Source: Planctomycetota bacterium
GTDB lineage: Bacteria > Planctomycetota > Phycisphaerae > WQYP01
DNA length: 15,035 nucleotides
Assembly (NCBI GenBank): GCA_021798635.1
Contig: JAJZGH010000109.1
Span: 1 to 15,035, forward strand
Direction of reading: 5' to 3'
How positions within the stretch are numbered: position 1 is the first letter of the stretch; every line of letters begins with the position of its first letter. The translations under genes were made by a program, and so were the position numbers. This document shows, piece by piece, positions 1,792-13,106 of this stretch. Below the pieces are notes generated by a model, which ran no database searches, was not told the origin of the DNA, and worked only from the letters and a program-made list of their open reading frames with translations.

Positions 1792-1826
1792 ATTCATTAT
1801 TCATTGACCATTCTAAATTCTAACTA
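1792..1826. repeat. Heptanucleotide array, ATTCATT then CTAAATT/CTAACTA
   Basis: Five in-phase 7-bp units are ATTCATT, ATTCATT, GACCATT, CTAAATT and CTAACTA. The array ends 11 bases from the stop of the 1838-2467 gene, on that gene's 3' side. Confidence 0.6.
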
Positions 1827-2589: not shown

Positions 2590-2680
2590 AAGGAGGTAGC
2601 GGAGGTAAACGGAGGACTTTCAATGTGCAAATGATGATGAAGTTAATCAGCGGCCCCGCTATATCCTCCGTTACCTCCTT
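2590..2680. repeat. Inverted repeat with purine-rich arms
   Basis: The arm aaggaggtagcggagg (2590-2605) matches the reverse complement of 2665-2680 at 15 of 16 positions. The 59 bases between contain AGCGG/CCGCT, a small secondary hairpin. The left arm carries a third GGAGG unit nearby (2611-2615), so this may be another short-period repeat placed in both orientations. Confidence 0.5.
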
Positions 2681-2721
2681 TACCTCTGTGGTAAAAAAAC
2701 AGTTCGATGGGTTCTGGACCG

Positions 2722-2785
2722 GGAAATTGGAATCTGAAATCTGGAACCTGGAATTTAGCATCTCGCATTTGGCATCCAGCAAAAT
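2722..2785. repeat. Nine-unit heptanucleotide array with changing unit type
   Basis: In-phase 7-bp units run GGAAATT, GGAATCT, GAAATCT, GGAACCT, GGAATTT, AGCATCT, CGCATTT, GGCATCC, AGCAAAA. The phase is unbroken while the unit sequence drifts from a GGAATCT type to a GGCATCC type. It is the longest array in the window. Confidence 0.75.
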
Positions 2786-2806: not shown

Positions 2807-2838
2807 TTCTAACTAACTTCTAACTTCTGCGTTCTCGT
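2807..2838. repeat. Heptanucleotide array, TTCTAAC type
   Basis: Units are TTCTAAC, a 4-base partial TAAC, then TTCTAAC, TTCTGCG and TTCTCGT. It is the minus-strand AGAAGTT type, as at 5077-5111. Confidence 0.65.
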
Positions 2839-2844
2839 ACGATT

Positions 2845-2898
2845 TCTCATTACTCATTATTCATTTGATTCTGTCCCCTGTAACCCGTAACCTGGAAC
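2845..2898. repeat. Two heptanucleotide arrays covering the end of the sigma gene
   Basis: Units TCTCATT, ACTCATT and ATTCATT (2845-2865) are followed after five bases by CTGTCCC, CTGTAAC, CCGTAAC and CTGGAAC (2871-2898). The second type is also found at 5039-5066. The stop codon of the minus-strand sigma gene (2861-2863) lies inside the third unit, and its last residues are encoded by the second array. Confidence 0.75.
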
Positions 2899-3715
2899 CT
2901 CCACCGGCTTCGAGAAGCTGGTGGGAGCGCGGATTGTCGCGCAGATGAGCAATGGCTCCGCGGTAGATTTGTCCCACCCGCCCGTGATGCAGGCCCATGA
3001 GCTGCCCGATTTGCCGGCAGGTCTGGTCTTCCAGAATGACGCGCCGCAAAATAAATATTTCCCGTGCCGATAAGCCCCGTGTCAGCACTGTGAACGTATC
3101 CTCAAATTCCACGTTAGGAGTTTCGGAAACAGTGTCGGGTTTCGCAGTTGCTGTTTCAGTCCTTACATCCGCCAGATCGCCCGCGCGGGTGCAGCGGGAT
3201 TGCCGGATCCATTTTCGCCGGGCGTCTAAAACCGCCCCGATAATTCGCCAGCGTACAAAACCCGCCAGCGTGACGGCACGTCGCGGGTCGTAGCTGTGCA
3301 GGGCGTCATGCAGGCCGACAAATGCTTCCTGCTCCAGATCGGCCCGATCTACCACAGCGGAATTTTGACAGTGCCGGATGGTCGCACGGATCAAAGGCGT
3401 GAAGGCCTGCGTCAGATCGCCCAGTGCCTGCCGGCGCGTTTGCATGGTTGGAGCATTTCTCCAAGCCTGGTACATCGCATCGAGCTGGTCGGTTGTCGTG
3501 TGCTGCGGCGAGTTGGCAACCCGCGGCGTGCGGAAATGCACCAGGGGGCGGCGCGGCAGCTTTTCCATAATCGCCGGCAATTGGCCGCGTTGTTGAATCC
3601 ACCCCAGCAGGGTGGATCCCCAGGTCTGCCAGGGCACGGGCAACAATGCCACAGCCTGTGCTTCCATGGGGAAACCACTGATCATTAAGCCGGTTTTATA
3701 CATACGCGCTTCCAT
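2861..3715 (-). CDS. Sigma-70 family RNA polymerase sigma factor (regions 2 and 4)
   Basis: This should be a DNA-binding subunit directing RNA polymerase to a set of promoters. Region 2 spans about residues 100-172, with DLEQEAFVGLHDALHSYDP (126-144) and the basic melting helix GFVRWRIIGAVLDARRKW (152-169). Region 4 spans about 208-260, with LSAREIFILRRVILE (215-229) and the helix-turn-helix CRQIGQLMGLHHGRVGQI. The form is like alternative factors of the FliA/SigB group with a short linker. The start is uncertain: Met1, Met5, Met17 and Met50 are all in frame, no clear ribosome site was seen, and the first 80 residues match nothing I know. The last 12 or so residues (GSRLRVTGDRIK) are encoded by tandem heptads rather than by family sequence. 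It is divergent from the hydrolase. Confidence 0.8.
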   Translation of the reverse strand: MEARMYKTGLMISGFPMEAQAVALLPVPWQTWGSTLLGWIQQRGQLPAIMEKLPRRPLVHFRTPRVANSPQHTTTDQLDAMYQAWRNAPTMQTRRQALGDLTQAFTPLIRATIRHCQNSAVVDRADLEQEAFVGLHDALHSYDPRRAVTLAGFVRWRIIGAVLDARRKWIRQSRCTRAGDLADVRTETATAKPDTVSETPNVEFEDTFTVLTRGLSAREIFILRRVILEDQTCRQIGQLMGLHHGRVGQIYRGAIAHLRDNPRSHQLLEAGGGSRLRVTGDRIK

Positions 3716-3860
3716 TTATTCATTTCCCGAGCATACCAAACAAAAACCTAACATACAGGCTATACATCGAAATGGGAATAGCGACTTGGCGCATGAAAAT
3801 ATTTCACGATACAAAAGCCCTGAATTTCTTAATTTTCTGCGGGGTGGTATAAAATCCTGC
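3716..3860. promoter_or_regulatory. Divergent intergenic region, sigma gene and hydrolase
   Basis: These 145 bases separate the minus-strand sigma gene from the plus-strand hydrolase and are clearly A/T-richer than the neighbouring coding DNA. TATAAAAT at 3848-3855 is a tempting -10 box but lies only a few bases before the hydrolase start and has no well-spaced -35. Promoters for both genes should lie here. Confidence 0.4.
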
Positions 3861-4856
3861 ATGATGGATGGCGCATTACCAACGGATTTGAATATCAAAG
3901 TTGCCCAAAGCGTTCCCATGAGTTTTTTCGCCTTCGGCTCGCCTGTGCGACATGCCGCCGATTTTCGCTTTGAATCTGATCCGCAAGTTACCAATGACGT
4001 AACCTATTATGTTCCCAATGGCGAATGGAATATGCCGCTGAAGATTCTGCGCTGCTCCAGCAGGCCCAAACCGGTCCTGCTGCTGTTGCATGGTTTGGGG
4101 TTGCATCCGGCATCGTTTCGCGGCATTTGCGGACATCTTTTGGCGGTCTGTGATGTCATCGTAGCGGATTACACCGGCTTTACCTTCGCGGGATCGTGGC
4201 CCGATGGCGGAATGAGCCTGCGGGTGCTGACCCATGCGATCATGCGCATTGCCGACACACTTGGCCTGGAGAAAATCAATATCGGCGGCTCGAGCCTGGG
4301 CGGCGGATTAAGCCTGATGGCTGCGGTTGATTTTCCGCAGCGTATCGATCGCATCGTGTTATTAAATCCCGCTATTTTTCCGCAAACGCTCCCCTCATTT
4401 TACCGCCTGGTTCGCGTGCCCGTGCTGGGGCCACTTATCATGCGATTGACGGCACCGGAAAACCTGGTCTGGGGTGTCACGACCATCGGTTACGTGGATC
4501 CGTCGAAAGCCGATCCGGAATTGCTGGCCATATATCAGGAGAATATGCGGCCTGCCGCCAACCGCCGCCGACTTCTGGATTTAATCCGCCACTTGCCCGA
4601 ACGCGACGCCGAAGTGCGGCACTATCTGGACCACACCGGCAGGCTGCCACAGCAAGTGCTGGTAATATGGGGAGAACAGGACAAGCTATTAGCCGCAGGC
4701 ACGGGCGAGCGCCTGCGCCAAAGCCTGCCGCATGTTGAATTTCACAGCTTCCCTGATTTATCCCATCTGCCGCATGAAGAAGCACCCGATCGGATTGGGG
4801 TGATTGTCGCGAGATTTGTCGCTTGCGGGGAGAAGGAGTTAGAAGTTAGAAGCTAG
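3861..4856 (+). CDS. Alpha/beta-fold hydrolase
   Basis: This is a single-domain cytoplasmic serine hydrolase of the alpha/beta fold with unknown substrate. From the chosen start it has 331 residues. The fold is marked by LLLLHGLG (oxyanion His77-Gly78), the nucleophile elbow GSSLG with Ser145, the acid in WGEQDKLL (Asp274) and the catalytic histidine in DLSHLPHEEAP (His302), giving a complete triad. A cap region lies about 170-250. No signal peptide is visible. The frame is open further upstream to 3612, but that would overlap the divergent sigma gene and adds no recognisable sequence, so the ATG-ATG pair at 3861/3864 is preferred; 3918 is another option. The C-terminal KELEVRS and the stop are encoded by the heptad array at 4834-4875. 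It is convergent with the 5093-5413 gene. Confidence 0.85.
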   Translation: MMDGALPTDLNIKVAQSVPMSFFAFGSPVRHAADFRFESDPQVTNDVTYYVPNGEWNMPLKILRCSSRPKPVLLLLHGLGLHPASFRGICGHLLAVCDVIVADYTGFTFAGSWPDGGMSLRVLTHAIMRIADTLGLEKINIGGSSLGGGLSLMAAVDFPQRIDRIVLLNPAIFPQTLPSFYRLVRVPVLGPLIMRLTAPENLVWGVTTIGYVDPSKADPELLAIYQENMRPAANRRRLLDLIRHLPERDAEVRHYLDHTGRLPQQVLVIWGEQDKLLAAGTGERLRQSLPHVEFHSFPDLSHLPHEEAPDRIGVIVARFVACGEKELEVRS

Positions 4857-4875
4857 AAGTTAGGAGTTAGGAGTT
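4834..4875. repeat. Six-unit heptanucleotide array AGRAGTT over a gene end
   Basis: Six consecutive units are AGGAGTT, AGAAGTT, AGAAGCT, AGAAGTT, AGGAGTT and AGGAGTT, followed by a partial seventh. The hydrolase stop TAG (4854-4856) spans the boundary of units three and four. The inverted counterpart is found at 4968-4995 and 5077-5111. Confidence 0.8.
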
Positions 4876-4967
4876 AGAAGGCTTCGGAAGCACTGCGCTT
4901 TCGTTTTGTCTGGCAGGCCATCGCGCACCGAGCGCCTCGCCCATTTCAAAAGCGAAGCTCTTCCAAA

Positions 4968-4995
4968 TTCTAACTCCTAACTCCTGACTCCTCCA
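4968..4995. repeat. Heptanucleotide array TYCTAAC, inverted to 4834-4875
   Basis: Units are TTCTAAC, TCCTAAC, TCCTGAC and TCCTCCA. This is the reverse complement of the AGRAGTT type and can pair with 4834-4875. Confidence 0.7.
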
Positions 4996-5002
4996 CCCCT
5001 AA

Positions 5003-5033
5003 TAAAAGGTACCTGACACCTTTTCCGCGTGTT
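5003..5033. repeat. 31-bp palindrome-containing repeat, copy 2
   Basis: It is identical to 1707-1737, with arms AAAAGGT (5004-5010) and ACCTTTT (5018-5024). As in copy 1 it follows a TYCTARC-type array on the plus strand. Confidence 0.7.
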
Positions 5034-5038
5034 TCACG

Positions 5039-5073
5039 CTGTAACCTGTCACCTGTCCCCTGTAACCTCGGCC
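5039..5073. repeat. Heptanucleotide array CTGTAAC type
   Basis: Units are CTGTAAC, CTGTCAC, CTGTCCC, CTGTAAC and CTCGGCC. It is the same type, in the same orientation, as 2871-2898. Confidence 0.7.
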
Positions 5074-5076
5074 GCC

Positions 5077-5111
5077 TCCTAACTTCTAACTTCTAGCTCC
5101 TGCCTCCTCGT
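5077..5111. repeat. Heptanucleotide array TYCTARC over the end of a minus-strand gene
   Basis: Units are TCCTAAC, TTCTAAC, TTCTAGC, TCCTGCC and TCCTCGT. Read on the minus strand it supplies the last codons and the TAG stop (5093-5095) of the 5093-5413 gene. Confidence 0.75.
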
Positions 5112-5413
5112 CCCACGTTCCATTCCCGGCGTCTTTGGGCGCAGCGGCAATTGGGGGCGAGGGGGTTTTTTGATTTTCGGGACAGCACGGCATTTAATAT
5201 TCGGGCGATGGGGTTGGCAAAAAGGTAGACAATATCGCCCCAGCCGCGCGGGCGGCCGGAATAAGAGGGACACACACGGCAAGTGCCCAGACTTGGCTTG
5301 CCGCCGTAGCGGCCCTGGCGGCAGCATCCGCCGCCGAGGATGCCGCACTCATACCAGTGGCGACAACGGCTGGGGCTGGAACGTCTGTGAAAATTTGCCG
5401 TATTGCTGGTCAT
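5093..5413 (-). CDS. Small cysteine-rich protein, last gene of the phage-like cluster
   Basis: The protein is 106 residues with eight cysteines at 17, 23, 30, 31, 45, 48, 89 and 91; TCRVC (44-48) is a CxxC-type pair that could bind zinc or form a disulfide. The second half has GWGDIVYLFANPIARILN (57-74) followed by NCRCAQRRREWN (88-99). This layout, a 'GxGD' helix and then 'CxCxxRxxxxN', is one I associate with short proteins in planctomycete phage-like structural clusters; that link is from memory, not a search. It starts three bases after the upstream gene's stop, so it is in the same operon. The C-terminal GRGGRS and the stop come from the heptad array at 5077-5111. Function unknown. Confidence 0.6.
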   Translation of the reverse strand: MTSNTANFHRRSSPSRCRHWYECGILGGGCCRQGRYGGKPSLGTCRVCPSYSGRPRGWGDIVYLFANPIARILNAVLSRKSKNPLAPNCRCAQRRREWNVGRGGRS

Positions 5414-8543: not shown

Positions 8544-8636
8544 AGCAACGGTTCACAGGGCGACTTGGGGATGGGGAACTGCGTCACAGAGCACCGTGGT
8601 GATAACCCGGTGGTTGGTTGGCGGCACTGGATCCAC

Positions 8637-8657
8637 CACCGGATTTAGCATCCGGTG
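8637..8657 (+). repeat. Perfect 7-bp stem-loop after pssA
   Basis: CACCGGA and TCCGGTG pair around the 7-base loop tttagca, about 95 bases after the pssA stop. No T-run follows, so it is not a standard Rho-independent terminator. The loop sequence resembles the TTTAGCA of the heptad units at 1551-1557 and 2754-2760. Confidence 0.5.
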
Positions 8658-8819
8658 CTCGGCGGGCCCGTCGTGGTTAAAGAGCACCGGCTCCGAGGCC
8701 GTAGTTGCCGCGCCCCACCTGCGGCAGAGCGTTTTCTGAAAATACCCTTGAACGCCCCCAAAAGATCAATTAATTACCATTTAATTTGCAACACGGAATT
8801 TTATTGCAATCTCGAATCA

Positions 8820-9005: not shown

Positions 9006-9104
9006 GCGGGCAGAGCTTTTGGAGCCATGGGGCAAATCGTTCGAGAATTGCGGTGATATGAAATATTCAAGAAATCTTTTTATTAGTGATCAGAGGGAAA
9101 GTTT

Positions 9105-12100
9105 ATGAAGCGTAACGTATTGTTGGGTGTGGCGGCTGCGGCAGCCGCGTTGGTTTTGCCCTCGGCAGCGTCTTTGATGGCGGCGGGGCAGTTGGCGATT
9201 CCGGATGCTCAGGGTTTTGGTGCCTACGCCACGGGCGGGCGCTCAGGCACCGTGCAGGTGGTCACGAATTTGAATGATTCCGGCCCCGGCTCGTTCCGGC
9301 AGGCGGTCAGTCAATCCAACTCGATTGTGGTTTTTGATGTCGGCGGGGTGATCAATCTGCAATCTGAACTTTTGATCGCCAGCAATGTGACGATATTCGG
9401 CCAAACCGCCCCGGGACAGGGAATCGCCCTTGAAGGCGGACCCAACGGTTATAATCTATCGCTTTCTAATTCATCGAACGATATTGTGCAGTACTTACGC
9501 ATGTTGCAGGGTGGCCCAAGCAATATAGGGAAAACCGCGGTGGATATGTACGGCACCAGCAATGCGCTGCTGGATCATGTCTCCATTGAATACGGCCCGT
9601 ATGACAACATCGACGCCGTAGGCAACGGCAATACCGGGGGGAATATCACCGTACAAAATTCGATTATTGCTGATCCGGTACTGGCGCAGACTTTTAACGT
9701 CCATTACCAGACCGGTCCCGGCAGCTTTTTTAATAATATTTTAGTCAGCGCGCATAACCGCAATCCCATGGCTAAAGCCAATATGCAGTTTGTCAACAAC
9801 GTGATTTATAACTTTCAGGCCGGCTATACCGTCGCCGATACCAGCGGCCGGTTTAATCAGGATATCATCGGCAATTATTTTATCACCGGTCCTTCCACCA
9901 CCAACCCCGGTGATGCCTTCTTCCAGATGGATACCAATATCAAGACCTACTCGGCCGGCAATCTGGAAAACAGCAGTGCCAACGGCGTTCTGAACGGCAC
10001 AAGCGTGACCCCTTCAAACACCACTGTTGCCACTACCCCGTTTTACTCAGAAACAGCCAAAACCGCGCAACAGGCCTACAGCTACGATGTTGCCAACGCC
10101 GGTGCTTCGCTGCACCTTAATTCTGTGGACGCCCAAGTGCTTAGTCAGGTGGAATCATTGGGCACTACCGGCCGCATTTTGAACACTCCTGCGGACACCG
10201 GCATTTCCAACGGCGGCTTCGGCACGGTTCAAGGCGGTTCTCTGCCTCTGGGCGGGCAAAGCGGTGATGTTCCCTTGGCGTGGATACAGCAGCACGGTCT
10301 CACGGCCGCCGATTTCGCCAACCCTACCGGCGACTACAACAACACCGGTTATGACAACATTGAAAAATATGCCGCTGCCCTTGCCGGTGAATCGATCCAG
10401 TTGGGCAACAGCGTCTATTGGAATGGTGCCGCCGGTAATGTATGGAATTCAGCCGGCAACTGGTCTACCTCGGCAACATCTAATGTAGCGTACAACAACA
10501 CGCCGCAGCCACTGGACGATGTCTATTTTACTTCCGGTGCCGATGTAACACTGGGGGCGGATCAAAGTGTTAACAGTGTCAACAGCAGTTCCAGCAATGC
10601 TGTGACCATCGGAGCCGGTGCCCATACATTAACAGTCGGAGCCGGCGGCATTCACACGTCCGCCGCCGGCGGATTAACCTTTAATTCCGCGGTGATGCTT
10701 AATGGCGGCGGCATTACCGCTTCATCGGGCCCCATCACCGTTGGCGACGGCCTGACACTTGCCAACGGCAACTATGAATTAACCGTTGCCGCCAACCAGG
10801 CTTTAACACTCAACGGTGTCCTGAATCGCAATAATGCCACGGCCGATTTCGCCAATAGCGGCAACATTTCCGGCAACAGCGTCGCCAATAGCGGCGCTAC
10901 CGGTATCATCGGCGGCTGGGCCACGTTCAATCAGACTGATTGGGCCACAGTTTCCGGCGGCAATGTTGTCGGGTATTCGAATTATCTGGATAATACCGGC
11001 AGTACTACAGCGATCAGCCACTTAACCGGATACAGCACCAGTTCCAATTTCCGCATCACCAGCGATTCCACCGGCGACGCTACTTTGGCTTCCGGGACCA
11101 CAGATATCAATACCCTGTTGGATGCGGATCAAACGACTGTCCGCCAAGTGGATATTGGCAGTGGCAACATTCTGCGATTGGGCGCTTCGGGCGGCGTACT
11201 GCAGGCCGCCAATGGCATGGGGCTGACGATTGGCGCGGCCGGTTCAACTTCCGGGTCCATCACTGCGGGCGGACCGGCCAGTAACAATGCCGGCGAATTA
11301 ATTCTTATCAACGATGCGACTGCCGCGCCGTTGACGGTGAATTCACAAATTATCAATAACGGTACAAGCAGCGTTTCACTTACCACCTCCGGGCCGGGCA
11401 CAACGGTACTTAATGCGGCCAATACCTATTCCGGTCCCACAAATATAGACTCGGGGACGCTGGTTCTGGGCAATGATGCGGCCCTGCCGTCGGCTGGCCA
11501 GGTCAATATCAGTCAGGGGGCCACCCTGGATATGGGCGGGCACAATGCTACGATTGGGTCGCTCAACGGAGCCGGCACGATAGACAACAACAATTCCAAC
11601 AATACCGGCAATTACACGCTCACCGTGGGCGGCAATAATGCCAGCAGCGTCTTTAACGGCGCGATAAACAACTCCGTGGGTTCTCTGGCGCTGGTAAAAA
11701 ATGGGACGGATAGTCTTACGCTGGGCGGGGCCAACAGCTTCTCCGGCGGTCTGACGTTGAACAACGGCACGCTGAATCTTAATAATGTTTCCGCTGCGGG
11801 GATCGGTACTTTGACCATCAATGGCGGCGCGGTGGATATGACCGCCGCAGTTACTACTTTGGATAACAACCTGCAACTCAACGGCGGCGTGGTTAATATT
11901 TCCAATGACTTCCTGGGGGTCAACGGGGCTGTTAATGTCACGGGCAATGCCACCATTAACACCGGCAACAAGGTTGTATATTTTGCCGGAGCGTTCAGCG
12001 GGAGTGGAACTTTGAACCTTACCGGTTCCTATGTGCCGACATTTGAATCCAGCTTCGCGGCCTTCACGGGCACGCTGAACCTCGGCTCCAGCAGTATGGA

Positions 12101-12959
12101 TCTCCGGCTCTTCGGCGGCTTTTATGGCAGCGCGGCGGCAATGTTTAATCTCGGCACGGGTGCTACCACGCTGGATGCTGGGAAAATTTACTACAATGAC
12201 ACCATTGCCCTGGGAGCACTGGACGGCGGCGGACAGACGGCCATTAACGGCAGTGCCACCGCCGGGCTAACCTTCGGCTATTCCATTGGAGGCAATAATC
12301 AGAATTCCAATTTTGCCGGTGTTATCAGCGACGGCTCCGGCTCACCGACATTTGTCACCAAAGTTGGTTCCGGCACGTTGACGCTTTCGGGAGCCAATAC
12401 TTACACCGGACCCACCACCGTATCGGTCGGCACATTGCTGGTTGACGGGGCGATTACCAGTGCTACCACCGTCAATGCCGGGGCAGTACTGGGCGGATCG
12501 GGCAGCGTTAATGCGGCGATCAACAACGCGGGAACCATCAGCCCGGGCGACGGCGGCACTGCGGGAACCTTGCAGATTACCAATCTGACGCTTAACAACA
12601 ACAGCAGCCTGAATTTTATCCTTAATGCACCCAATGTGGCTGCCGGCACCGGCGGTAATAGCCTCATTGCCACTACCGATACTACCCTGGGTACCGGAAT
12701 AGCGCTGAATATCGCGGCCGGTTCGCAGTTCGGTGCCGGCGTCTATCATCTGATGAGTTTTTCCGATGCGATCAATAACTTGGCCGACTTGAATTCCTGG
12801 AAAATCACCGGCCCGACCGGGTATACGTATACGCTTAGCGATCCAGCCGAAATGCTGAACTTGAATGTCGCAGCCGTACCTGAACCCGCCGCTCTTGGAT
12901 TGTTACTGCTTGGCGGCAGCGCAGCGTTGGTGATTGGCAAGCGCCGCAGAGTTGGCTGA
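9105..12959 (+). CDS. Secreted PL1-type pectate lyase with beta-strand repeats and PEP-CTERM tail
   Basis: The 1284-residue exported protein should cleave pectate-type polymers outside the cytoplasm. In order: signal peptide 1-27; pectate lyase beta-helix about 30-405, with AQGFGAYATGGRSGTVQVV, NLNDSGPGSFRQAV, the stack NVTIFGQTAPGQGI, LLDHVSIEYG and SAHNRNPM-NNVIYNF, the HNRNP matching the catalytic-arginine HxxRxP region; a DYNNTGYDNIEKY loop near 410 typical of the end of such lyases; WNGAAGNVWNSAGNW at about 437, which usually opens passenger-type repeats; autotransporter-associated beta-strand repeats with NTYSGPT (near 772), NSFSGG (near 870) and NTYTGPT (near 1090); and VPEP (1258-1261), a hydrophobic helix and KRRR at the end, the PEP-CTERM/exosortase sorting signal. 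There is no autotransporter barrel. The start is fixed by AGAGGGAAAG eight bases before the ATG. The catalytic assignment is by homology pattern. Confidence 0.88.
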   Translation: MKRNVLLGVAAAAAALVLPSAASLMAAGQLAIPDAQGFGAYATGGRSGTVQVVTNLNDSGPGSFRQAVSQSNSIVVFDVGGVINLQSELLIASNVTIFGQTAPGQGIALEGGPNGYNLSLSNSSNDIVQYLRMLQGGPSNIGKTAVDMYGTSNALLDHVSIEYGPYDNIDAVGNGNTGGNITVQNSIIADPVLAQTFNVHYQTGPGSFFNNILVSAHNRNPMAKANMQFVNNVIYNFQAGYTVADTSGRFNQDIIGNYFITGPSTTNPGDAFFQMDTNIKTYSAGNLENSSANGVLNGTSVTPSNTTVATTPFYSETAKTAQQAYSYDVANAGASLHLNSVDAQVLSQVESLGTTGRILNTPADTGISNGGFGTVQGGSLPLGGQSGDVPLAWIQQHGLTAADFANPTGDYNNTGYDNIEKYAAALAGESIQLGNSVYWNGAAGNVWNSAGNWSTSATSNVAYNNTPQPLDDVYFTSGADVTLGADQSVNSVNSSSSNAVTIGAGAHTLTVGAGGIHTSAAGGLTFNSAVMLNGGGITASSGPITVGDGLTLANGNYELTVAANQALTLNGVLNRNNATADFANSGNISGNSVANSGATGIIGGWATFNQTDWATVSGGNVVGYSNYLDNTGSTTAISHLTGYSTSSNFRITSDSTGDATLASGTTDINTLLDADQTTVRQVDIGSGNILRLGASGGVLQAANGMGLTIGAAGSTSGSITAGGPASNNAGELILINDATAAPLTVNSQIINNGTSSVSLTTSGPGTTVLNAANTYSGPTNIDSGTLVLGNDAALPSAGQVNISQGATLDMGGHNATIGSLNGAGTIDNNNSNNTGNYTLTVGGNNASSVFNGAINNSVGSLALVKNGTDSLTLGGANSFSGGLTLNNGTLNLNNVSAAGIGTLTINGGAVDMTAAVTTLDNNLQLNGGVVNISNDFLGVNGAVNVTGNATINTGNKVVYFAGAFSGSGTLNLTGSYVPTFESSFAAFTGTLNLGSSSMDLRLFGGFYGSAAAMFNLGTGATTLDAGKIYYNDTIALGALDGGGQTAINGSATAGLTFGYSIGGNNQNSNFAGVISDGSGSPTFVTKVGSGTLTLSGANTYTGPTTVSVGTLLVDGAITSATTVNAGAVLGGSGSVNAAINNAGTISPGDGGTAGTLQITNLTLNNNSSLNFILNAPNVAAGTGGNSLIATTDTTLGTGIALNIAAGSQFGAGVYHLMSFSDAINNLADLNSWKITGPTGYTYTLSDPAEMLNLNVAAVPEPAALGLLLLGGSAALVIGKRRRVG

Positions 12960-13106
12960 CCCGGTACGATCTTCTGCCGACATGGAAGGTCGGGGCGGGC
13001 ACTGACGTTTGACGCATCCGTCGGCGGTTGCAATTAAATGGATGGAGAGAGATGGAAAAAAATGTTGCCACGCGGTATTCGCGGTGCTGATGCTAAAGGA
13101 GTTTCC
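12960..13106. other. Short gap between lyase genes, weak hairpin and ribosome site
   Basis: CCGAC (12977-12981) and GTCGG (12989-12993) form a small stem without a following T-run, so read-through into the next gene is possible. AAGGAG at 13096-13101, five bases before the next ATG, is a strong ribosome site and decides that start. Confidence 0.5.

What the first reader, a model, noticed from the sequence alone, without database searches (positions are those of the whole stretch)
2845..5111. Three unrelated genes take their stop codon and C-terminus from heptad arrays
The sigma gene (stop 2861-2863), the hydrolase (stop 4854-4856) and the cysteine-rich gene (stop 5093-5095) all end inside arrays of 7-bp units. 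Their last residues (GSRLRVTGDRIK, KELEVRS, GRGGRS) are read from the repeats rather than from family sequence. A fourth gene (1838) stops 11 bases from an array. This suggests that the arrays insert at or near 3' ends and rewrite C-termini, or that selection keeps them as a 3'-end structure.
Basis: partly seen in the sequence, partly recalled or inferred. Interest (0 to 1): 0.72.

Follow-up and report, generated by a model that had tools for sequence, protein, structure and literature searches.

The report
Repeat islands rewriting bacterial protein ends
In an uncultured planctomycete, patches of DNA built from seven-letter repeats sit between genes, sometimes supply a gene's last few amino acids and its stop signal, and in a close relative are read straight through inside sugar-transferase genes.

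Summary
In detail: sigma, hydrolase and Cys-rich genes stop inside 7-bp arrays and take their last residues from them. The tails lie past the conserved residues; none of 38 other listed hydrolase homologues shares GEKELEVRS. In L031, 98% identical, two of the three tails differ and the third array is one heptad shorter.
In G001 and G002 arrays come within 20 bp of 3' ends more often than of 5' ends: 17 of 646 flanks against 3 of 702; 27 of 300 against 4 of 314. Random placement of each array block in its gap predicts 11.5 and 21.7 of these, so most of it reflects islands that fill the noncoding gap.
In G002 arrays are often arms of dispersed palindromic islands, which also lie in frame inside glycosyltransferase genes, array stops being spelled away in 13 of 16 arrays in ORFs, 4 of 77 between genes, in loops predicted disordered. 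C-terminal rewriting is thus probably a by-product of islands tolerated wherever sequence is unconstrained. Closest known: Rickettsia palindromic elements, REP/BIME, heptamer arrays. New variant; mover unknown.

The parts
2590..2690 (.). Inverted pair of 9-bp-unit arrays (GGAGGTAAC-type at about 2590-2615, CCTCCGTTA-type at about 2665-2690), inside the island between gene 1838-2467 and sigma
   Evidence: TRF 2592-2615, 2665-2686; paired in the fold
2722..2758 (.). Heptad array TGGAATC/TGGAACC in the sigma 3' island
2838..2865 (-). Heptad array (AATGAGT/AATGAAT on the sigma coding strand) holding the sigma stop codon 2861-2863
2871..2900 (-). Heptad array (GGTTACR/GGTTCCA on the coding strand) read as GSRLRVTGDR in the sigma C-terminus; homology with L031 resumes at 2877
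2861..3715 (-). Sigma-70-family gene (regions 2 and 4); tail beyond region 4 differs in each of five relatives read
3864..4856 (+). Alpha/beta hydrolase gene; conserved domain ends at about FVAC, tail GEKELEVRS is array-encoded
4831..4883 (+). Heptad array AGTTAGA/AGTTAGG; left arm of the palindromic island; holds the hydrolase stop codon
4884..4959 (.). Core of the palindromic island (GGCTTCGGAAGC..GCGCTTTCGTTTTG..GGCAGG..AAAAGCGAAGCTCTTCC)
4960..4998 (-). Heptad array CTAACTC on the + strand; right arm of the palindromic island
5006..5026 (.). AAAAGGTACCTGACACCTTTT, a REP-like palindrome; copies of its centre flank a RAYT transposase gene in G001 (L196); second copy in the window at about 1710-1730
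5035..5069 (-). Heptad array CTGTAAC/CTGTCAC/CTGTCCC on the + strand
5074..5109 (-). Heptad array CTAACTT on the + strand holding the Cys-gene stop codon; L031 has one heptad fewer
5093..5413 (-). Cys-rich small gene, conserved to REWN; tail after it variable
1811..1824 (.). Two imperfect heptad copies TTCTAAATTCTAAC, 13 bases from the stop of gene 1838-2467 (weak)

Best explanation
The arrays are pieces, often outer arms, of dispersed repeat islands that occupy the noncoding DNA of this genus. SHOWN: in G002 adjacent opposite-facing GTTAG arrays are mostly arranged [GGAGTTAG]n - core - [CTAACTCC]n, and the window island 4831-5110 folds as one palindrome; array blocks tend to start at the stop codon on a 3' side and lie further off on a 5' side; content differs between near-identical strains. 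When an island lies at or across a 3' end, the reading frame runs into the arm. Because 7 is not a multiple of 3, a heptad holding TAG or TAA closes all three frames within about 21 bases, and every frame through (GGAGTTA)n ends on a suffix of ELGVRS. A gene therefore gains a short repeat-encoded tail and a new stop. The GTTACAG arm has no stop on that strand and is read through as a longer tail (sigma, GSRLRVTG). INFERRED: islands spread by copying or transposition; they persist where sequence is unconstrained (past the last conserved residue, upstream of the promoter, or in a loop of a tolerant protein); C-terminal rewriting is a by-product, not a function. The mover is unknown.
For: Tails differ while domains stay: sigma GSRLRVTGDRIK (window), GSRLRVTGSRFRTKELPAIANATLL (L031)..VVEHAEKVSGTFYWEG.. 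(L032, L033; read, by my translation, through the REP-like module)..GRFNE (L034), TETQ (L035); hydrolase GEKELEVRS, AT, TT, RSRS, RRS, KRS in window and L031-L035, RGDIRR in L036. In the 38 other listed hydrolase homologues tails are 0-17 aa and unconserved. Against the 98%-identical L031: 351 bp at the sigma end is 40 bp, 105 bp at the hydrolase end is 2.4 kb, one heptad fewer at the Cys end. Of 40 adjacent GTTAG-array pairs under 300 bp apart in G002, 19 face inward, 4 outward, 17 run the same way; inward against outward p=0.0026; ten of the 19 gaps are 47-60 bp. Island fold z -6.86 as DNA, 0 of 200 shuffles as good. Block permutation explains most stop adjacency. Arrays more than 45 bp inside called ORFs: 21 of 174 in G002, 4 of 97 in G001, in nine ORFs, five of them glycosyltransferases. 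GTTAG arrays in G002 ORFs carry GTTGGAAG or GATAGGAG in 13 of 16 cases, between genes in 4 of 77 (Fisher 4e-10; the 13 come from four ORFs and are in part copies of one another). Islands between genes are stop-free in 9 of 390 frames. Five short homologues lack both inserts; AlphaFold gives pLDDT under 50 at 233-283 and 311-378, which cover most of the array-coded residues, and 90 or more for 318 of 499 residues.
Against: No transposition event, target-site duplication or mover was shown: 0 of 10 RAYT loci hold the core, and the strict REP-like module lies within 300 bp of an array in only 1 of 14 cases. A 3' excess remains after the block permutation (17 of 2000 and 39 of 2000 simulations reach the observed; 95 of 2000 in the 80 unpicked G001 stretches), and a larger one if arrays are placed singly (1 and 2 of 2000); the 40-bp buffer used for 5' sides is itself rough, since it forbids the 3 and 4 near-start arrays seen. 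In the window only one island is a clear palindrome; the sigma island and the Cys-side strand fold no better than shuffles (z -0.45, -0.91). Inward pairing is significant only in G002; G001 has just 2 pairs, both inward, and no orientation bias at 5' flanks (18:16). Internal in-frame copies are shown in G002, G007 and G008, not in the window. Slippage alone could explain copy-number change.
Confidence: 0.62

Rival explanations
1. The arrays are kept by selection as a 3'-end RNA structure (terminator or exonuclease block): the two arms pair in the transcript beyond the stop codon.
For: RNA fold of the hydrolase 3' end z -4.41, 0 of 200 shuffles as good. An array occupies the hydrolase 3' end in the window, L033 and L034 at about 80% identity. 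Reading away from the gene, the G-rich strand leads at 3' flanks under 60 bp in 30 of 32 signed cases in G002 and 14 of 15 in G001.
Against: The same orientation holds at 5' flanks in G002 (30:9), so there it is a property of the island. Cys and sigma ends do not fold significantly. Terminator-like sites 6 against 5.1 +- 2.6 in shuffles. L031 and L032 lack the array at the hydrolase end. No Rfam match at gathering scores.
Confidence: 0.14
2. The element inserts by preference at gene 3' ends or stop codons (for example into terminator hairpins), so C-terminal rewriting is part of its targeting.
For: Sharp peak in G001: 14 first arrays at 0-20 bp from the stop against 0 at 20-40 bp. Residual excess over random placement, 17 against 11.5 and 27 against 21.7 for blocks, against 9.0 and 17.2 for single arrays.
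Against: The block residual is small. With ORFs of at least 150 aa in the 80 unpicked G001 stretches the 3' against 5' contrast is 11 to 4, p=0.12 (6 to 1, p=0.12 at the stricter threshold). Copies inside glycosyltransferase genes and upstream of genes. Target-site duplications were not looked for.
Confidence: 0.13
3. No mobile element: heptads arise and grow in place by replication slippage in unconstrained DNA, like the short tandem heptamers described in cyanobacteria and Beggiatoaceae.
For: One-heptad difference at the Cys end between the window and L031; many different units (GTTAGRA, GTTACAG, GGTTCCA, CATCTGG, AATGAGT, GATCAGT).
Against: The same shoulder-plus-arm sequence recurs in unlinked places: AGCGCTTCCN0-8ATTCTAACT 47 times in G002 and 10 in G001, 0 in the reversed control, and 16 aligned elements share GCAGG at the centre (these were chosen as inward pairs). 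Slippage does not make inverted arms with a shared centre.
Confidence: 0.11

Closest known systems
Rickettsia palindromic elements, RPE (seen in passages of PMC2229807 and PMC10969869; original papers not read)
   Same: Short dispersed palindromic repeats, both between genes and fused in frame into protein genes, with recurring encoded peptides and apparently tolerated insertions.
   Different: Arms here are variable heptad arrays whose usual spelling closes all frames; in-frame copies carry stop-erasing units; the inserts studied pile up as mosaics at two loops of one glycosyltransferase family; a different phylum. Sequence kinship not tested.
TAACTGA heptamer direct repeats of Beggiatoaceae, cyanobacteria and Bacteroidetes (PMC4679880; abstract and sections 10 and 15 read)
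   Same: Intergenic heptamer arrays; that paper already notes that forward arrays give stops in all three frames and necessarily end ORFs, that in 13 ORFs repeats overlap the stop codon, and that insertions in coding DNA seem to succeed mostly at protein ends.
   Different: In its main strain most arrays lie just upstream of start codons; here they crowd 3' ends. The units differ, many are arms of palindromes, and internal in-frame copies at two loops of one protein family occur. I did not search for TAACTGA itself.
REP/BIME with RAYT transposases (PMC2817692, PMC3733652; start of abstracts in search listings only)
   Same: Composite palindromic intergenic mosaics; the GGTGTCAGGTACC palindrome of the window flanks a RAYT gene in G001 (L196), as REPs do; short heptad-like DNA (CTGTAACCTGTCCCC) lies beside one of those copies.
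   Different: The heptad palindrome core is absent from 10 RAYT loci, and arrays pass my threshold in 2 of the 10; the REP-like module is rarely beside arrays (1 of 14).
Cyanobacterial STRR and small dispersed repeats (recalled; the searches listed no paper devoted to them)
   Same: Heptamer tandem arrays with dispersed short elements in or beside them.
   Different: Not compared at sequence level; other phylum.

Membership tests
Rickettsia-palindromic-element-like repeats | Long palindromic (stem-loop) repeat dispersed in the genome | tested here: met
   Window 4831-5110 z -6.86; G002 inward pairs 19 against 4 outward and 17 same-way; shoulder-plus-arm pattern in 7 of 8 genus genomes. Other window islands do not fold above shuffles.
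Rickettsia-palindromic-element-like repeats | Open frame fused in frame inside protein genes | tested here: met
   Arrays inside open ORFs in G002: 21 of 174; five glycosyltransferase ORFs; homologues in G007 and G008 also carry repeat inserts in open frames. In the window itself only C-terminal tails.
Rickettsia-palindromic-element-like repeats | Insertions in many unrelated protein families | tested here: inconclusive
   Of nine ORFs with internal arrays five are glycosyltransferases; the other four (two in L079, one each in L140 and L151) were not examined for real insertion.
Rickettsia-palindromic-element-like repeats | Sequence homology to RPE families | not tested
   No RPE sequence was compared.
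REP/BIME | Palindromic module repeated beside a RAYT (Y1_Tnp) gene (window's GGTGTCAGGTACC module) | tested here: met
   Six copies around the RAYT ORF 754-1575 of L196; the other nine RAYT loci have none.
REP/BIME | Palindromic module repeated beside a RAYT gene (heptad palindrome) | tested here: not met
   Core in 0 of 10 RAYT loci, arrays in 2 of 10.
TAACTGA-type heptamer arrays | Arrays mostly just upstream of start codons, as in the main strain of PMC4679880 | tested here: not met
   Within 20 bp: 3' flanks 17 of 646 and 27 of 300, 5' flanks 3 of 702 and 4 of 314.
Intrinsic terminators | GC-rich hairpin followed by a T run at the 3' end | tested here: not met
   No excess over shuffles, 6 against 5.1 +- 2.6; one predicted site, 4885-4903, does lie in the island core.
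MITE | Target-site duplication and a matching transposase | not tested
   Arms of variable length leave no fixed end; no clean empty site was dissected.

The most novel reading that the evidence does not exclude
A planctomycete genus carries palindromic repeat islands whose heptad arms act in two modes: with the usual spelling they are universal three-frame stops that cap genes with an ..ELGVRS-type tail, and with one or two substituted units they become an open-frame, protein-coding form that has repeatedly entered two loops of a glycosyltransferase family, making those loops hypervariable between strains.
Probability: 0.4. Interest if true: 0.72.

Novelty: new variant of a known kind. Interest (0 to 1): 0.55.

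Why it matters
It ties short tandem heptamers, noted in bacterial intergenic DNA without agreed function, to palindromic islands that reach into proteins. The arithmetic (7 against 3) makes a testable rule: such arrays cap any gene they touch with the same few residues unless a unit is altered. The paired sites (array against no array at the same gene end in 98%-identical strains; inserts against no inserts at the same glycosyltransferase loop) give a natural series for asking whether repeat-made protein ends and loops are neutral or used. It also warns that predicted C-termini and loops in such MAGs may be repeat DNA.

Tried and rejected
Terminator reading: scan gives no excess, two of three ends do not fold above shuffles. 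RAYT as the mover of the heptad islands: RAYTs are in 8 of 8 genus genomes, but only the REP-like module sits beside one; the core is in 0 of 10 RAYT loci fetched (of 44 matches listed) and the strict module lies within 300 bp of an array in 1 of 14 cases, that one being the window's own counterpart in G001. Telomere-like end addition was considered from the inverted orientation (note) and integron attC in passing; both dropped: attC has the opposite edge order (recalled), and a shared core between the arms argues for a copied element. A surplus of ..GVRS ends is seen in G002 (4 of 376 complete ORFs against 0.015 expected) but not in G001 (0 of 870). A 3' contrast restricted to ORFs of at least 150 aa in the 80 unpicked G001 stretches is not significant (11 against 4 of 571, p=0.12). 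The 12 unpicked G002 stretches held no arrays, so G002 figures rest on 28 stretches chosen because the GGAGTTAG pattern was there; this biases which array types are seen, less so their place relative to gene ends. G001 figures of 100 stretches include 20 chosen for repeat hits and one contig that is the window's own counterpart. Gene calls come from my own script; stop codons are exact, starts are not. My first count of stop-erasing units (10 of 13 against 3 of 69) used a narrower array filter; one search recounts with a plain one (13 of 16 against 4 of 77). In the phylum draw the reversed control also gave 4 matches in 2 of 149 genomes. Output was cut in the middle and I used only what was printed. 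Rfam gave nothing.
Full report
WHAT IS THERE. The window comes from an uncultured planctomycete (record titles of near relatives: Planctomycetota and Phycisphaerales MAGs); its own assembly is not held and the nearest genome, G001, shares 62% of sampled 31-mers. Between 2.7 and 5.1 kb seven period-7 stretches are found. Three stop codons lie in them: sigma 2861-2863, hydrolase 4854-4856, Cys-rich gene 5093-5095. The fourth gene named (1838) has only two imperfect heptad copies 13 bases away.

THE TAILS ARE EXTRA. Sigma regions 2 and 4 end at residue 259 of 284 and the hydrolase domain at about 311 of 331. Relatives were read at each end where their contigs cover it: six for the hydrolase, five for sigma, three for the Cys gene. 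The hydrolase is conserved to about FVAC; then window GEKELEVRS, L031 AT, L032 TT, L033 RSRS, L034 RRS, L035 KRS, L036 (48% identical) RGDIRR. Sigma is conserved to about NPRxxQLL; then all five relatives differ from the window, and in L032 and L033 the tail VVEHAEKVSGTFYWEG is, by my translation, a read-through of a second repeat, the AAAAGGTGTCAGGTACCTTTT module. The Cys gene is conserved to REWN; L031 keeps the window's GRGGRS, L032 and L035 do not. Among 39 listed hydrolase proteins one is identical to the window's; in the other 38 tails are 0 to 17 residues and none is GEKELEVRS, though two end in RS. So the tails are repeat-made, but they stand where this family's C-terminus is free anyway.

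TURNOVER BETWEEN NEAR-IDENTICAL STRAINS. L031 (apparently the same contig as G001:C4) is 98% identical over 1,951 bp and 4,112 bp. At the sigma end 351 bp of the window is 40 bp in L031; at the hydrolase end 105 bp is 2.4 kb, holding DNA-methylase and HNH-like genes by eye; the Cys array is one heptad shorter. The array at the hydrolase end is shared with L033 and L034 at about 80% identity, while L031 and L032 share the other state. So the state of this gene end does not follow overall similarity.

GENOME-WIDE PLACE. In 80 unpicked G001 stretches (1,033,884 bp) lag-7 arrays number 70 against 4-8 at lags 8, 10, 11, 13. First array within 20 bp of the gene edge or overlapping it: 12 of 487 3' flanks, 3 of 527 5' flanks; with 20 picked stretches added 17 of 646 against 3 of 702, p=0.001. 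In G002, 27 of 300 against 4 of 314, p=8.7e-6. With only ORFs of at least 150 aa: G001 17 against 4 of 748 (p=0.007), unpicked part 11 against 4 of 571 (p=0.12), G002 31 against 5 of 325 (p=7.6e-6); at the stricter array threshold 7 to 1 (p=0.07), 6 to 1 (p=0.12) and 23 to 3 (p=6e-5). But when each array block is dropped at random into its own gap (40-bp buffer at 5' sides) 11.5 of the 17 and 21.7 of the 27 are expected, with 17 and 39 of 2000 simulations reaching the observed. If arrays are placed singly, 9.0 and 17.2 are expected (1 and 2 of 2000), so part of the excess is that arrays in a gap travel as one block. The block model says that islands fill gaps, and a gap ends at the stop codon on one side and near the promoter on the other; a modest residual remains.

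ANATOMY OF THE ISLANDS. Reading away from a gene the G-rich strand (GGAGTTAG, GGTTACAG) leads at 3' flanks under 60 bp, 30:2 in G002 and 14:1 in G001; over all distances 35:14 and 23:11 at 3' flanks, 30:9 and 18:16 at 5' flanks. Of 40 adjacent GTTAG-array pairs under 300 bp apart in G002, 19 face inward, 4 outward (p=0.0026) and 17 run the same way; ten inward gaps are 47-60 bp. G001 has two such pairs, both inward. Sixteen inward elements with gaps under 120 bp (one from the window, one from G001, fourteen from G002) align on a centre sharing GCAGG, usually GGCAGGC..GCCTGCC, with a GGAAGCGCT-like left shoulder, an AGCGCTTCC-like right shoulder, or both. The right-shoulder-plus-arm pattern occurs in 7 of 8 genus genomes, reversed control 0. 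The window island 4831-5110 folds as one palindrome (z -6.86; RNA 4820-5000 z -4.41); the sigma island and the Cys strand do not beat shuffles. GGAGTTAGGAGTTAGRAG is in 8 of 8 genomes of the genus, 12 of 28 of the family in 2 of 11 genera, and 1 of 149 of a phylum-wide draw, that one being G001.

WHY TAILS LOOK ALIKE. Seven is not a multiple of three, so a heptad with TAG or TAA closes every frame within about 21 bases, and all three frames through (GGAGTTA)n end on suffixes of ELGVRS. The rule of stops in all three frames was already stated for TAACTGA arrays (PMC4679880, section 15 read). In G002 four of 376 complete ORFs end in GVRS against 0.015 expected; in G001 none of 870.

INSIDE GENES. 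In G002, 21 of 174 arrays lie more than 45 bp inside called ORFs, in G001 4 of 97. Of the nine ORFs concerned five are glycosyltransferases (L150 393-1892 and 3653-5410, L162 6881-8146 and 12453-14045, L168 8507-9931); the other four were not followed. The L150 protein has two inserts, full of RSWKLED, SNSYLL and LQVTG peptides from the arms, where five short homologues (P0072, P0076, P0077, P0090, P0114) have none. Of 119 other homologues listed (391 found), 13 hold such arm peptides, two more only the loose motif NSSP; close ones read in full have other mosaics at the same two places, as do G007 and G008. AlphaFold gives a confident core (318 of 499 residues at pLDDT 90 or more) and pLDDT under 50 at 233-283 and 311-378; the arrays code for residues within 219-287 and 313-376. 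GTTAG arrays in ORFs carry GTTGGAAG or GATAGGAG in 13 of 16 cases, against 4 of 77 between genes (p=4e-10); the 13 sit in four ORFs and are partly copies of one another, so the p-value overstates. Intergenic island segments are open in 9 of 390 frames. So the reading frame has been kept through DNA that normally closes it.

COMPARISON WITH WHAT IS KNOWN. It works like the Rickettsia palindromic elements, known for in-frame fusions (passages of PMC2229807 and PMC10969869), and like heptamer arrays (PMC4679880, abstract and two sections). One module of the window is a REP-like palindrome by its place around a RAYT gene in G001; the heptad palindrome core is in none of 10 RAYT loci, though two of them hold arrays and short heptad-like DNA lies beside the L196 copies. 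I found no paper describing this element: the searches were made, in an open-licence library only, read at listing level apart from the passages named and passages of PMC4853749, which reports TAACTGA in Thiomargarita.

VERDICT. The stronger result is that the same kind of island reaches into proteins, at ends in the window and inside glycosyltransferases in relatives.

Noticed in passing
window 9030-13009: The PEP-CTERM, autotransporter-like 1284-aa gene (9105-12959; label by eye) is missing from the 98%-identical L031, where the flanking matches are about 6 bp apart (9011 and 9018).
   Followed up: no
window 8581-8689: About 100-bp dispersed repeat (AGCACCGTGGTGATAACCCGGTGG..) with dozens of matches in G001, some close together; its start motif is also in the G002 stretches.
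   Followed up: partly
L031 2522-4907; L032 2242-4848: A 2.4-2.6 kb stretch, holding DNA-methylase and HNH-like genes in L031 (by eye; L032 not read through), stands between hydrolase and Cys gene in place of the window's array.
   Followed up: partly
L196 754-1575: RAYT transposase gene flanked by six copies of the GGTGTCAGGTACC palindrome that also occurs at window 1712 and 5008.
   Followed up: yes
L162 1-18275, L154, L150 (G002): Arrays in G002 are strongly clustered: 44, 26 and 17 in three stretches; L162 and L150 are rich in glycosyltransferases and L162 holds, by eye, small nucleotidyltransferase/HEPN-like pairs; 12 unpicked stretches have none.
   Followed up: partly
L191 (G007) glycosyltransferase ORF: The same loops hold different repeats, including a tandem GIHKEVGEGYGGSLMVTTGDEQR-type stretch, so several repeat families use this site.
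   Followed up: no
window 2590-2690: Inverted pair of 9-bp-unit arrays (GGAGGTAAC / CCTCCGTTA) forming a hairpin within the sigma island.
   Followed up: no
L079 4786-6117 and 6930-8417 (G001): Two similar Rhs-like C-terminal ORFs (by eye), each with an array-encoded DSNSQLLAPNSS stretch.
   Followed up: no
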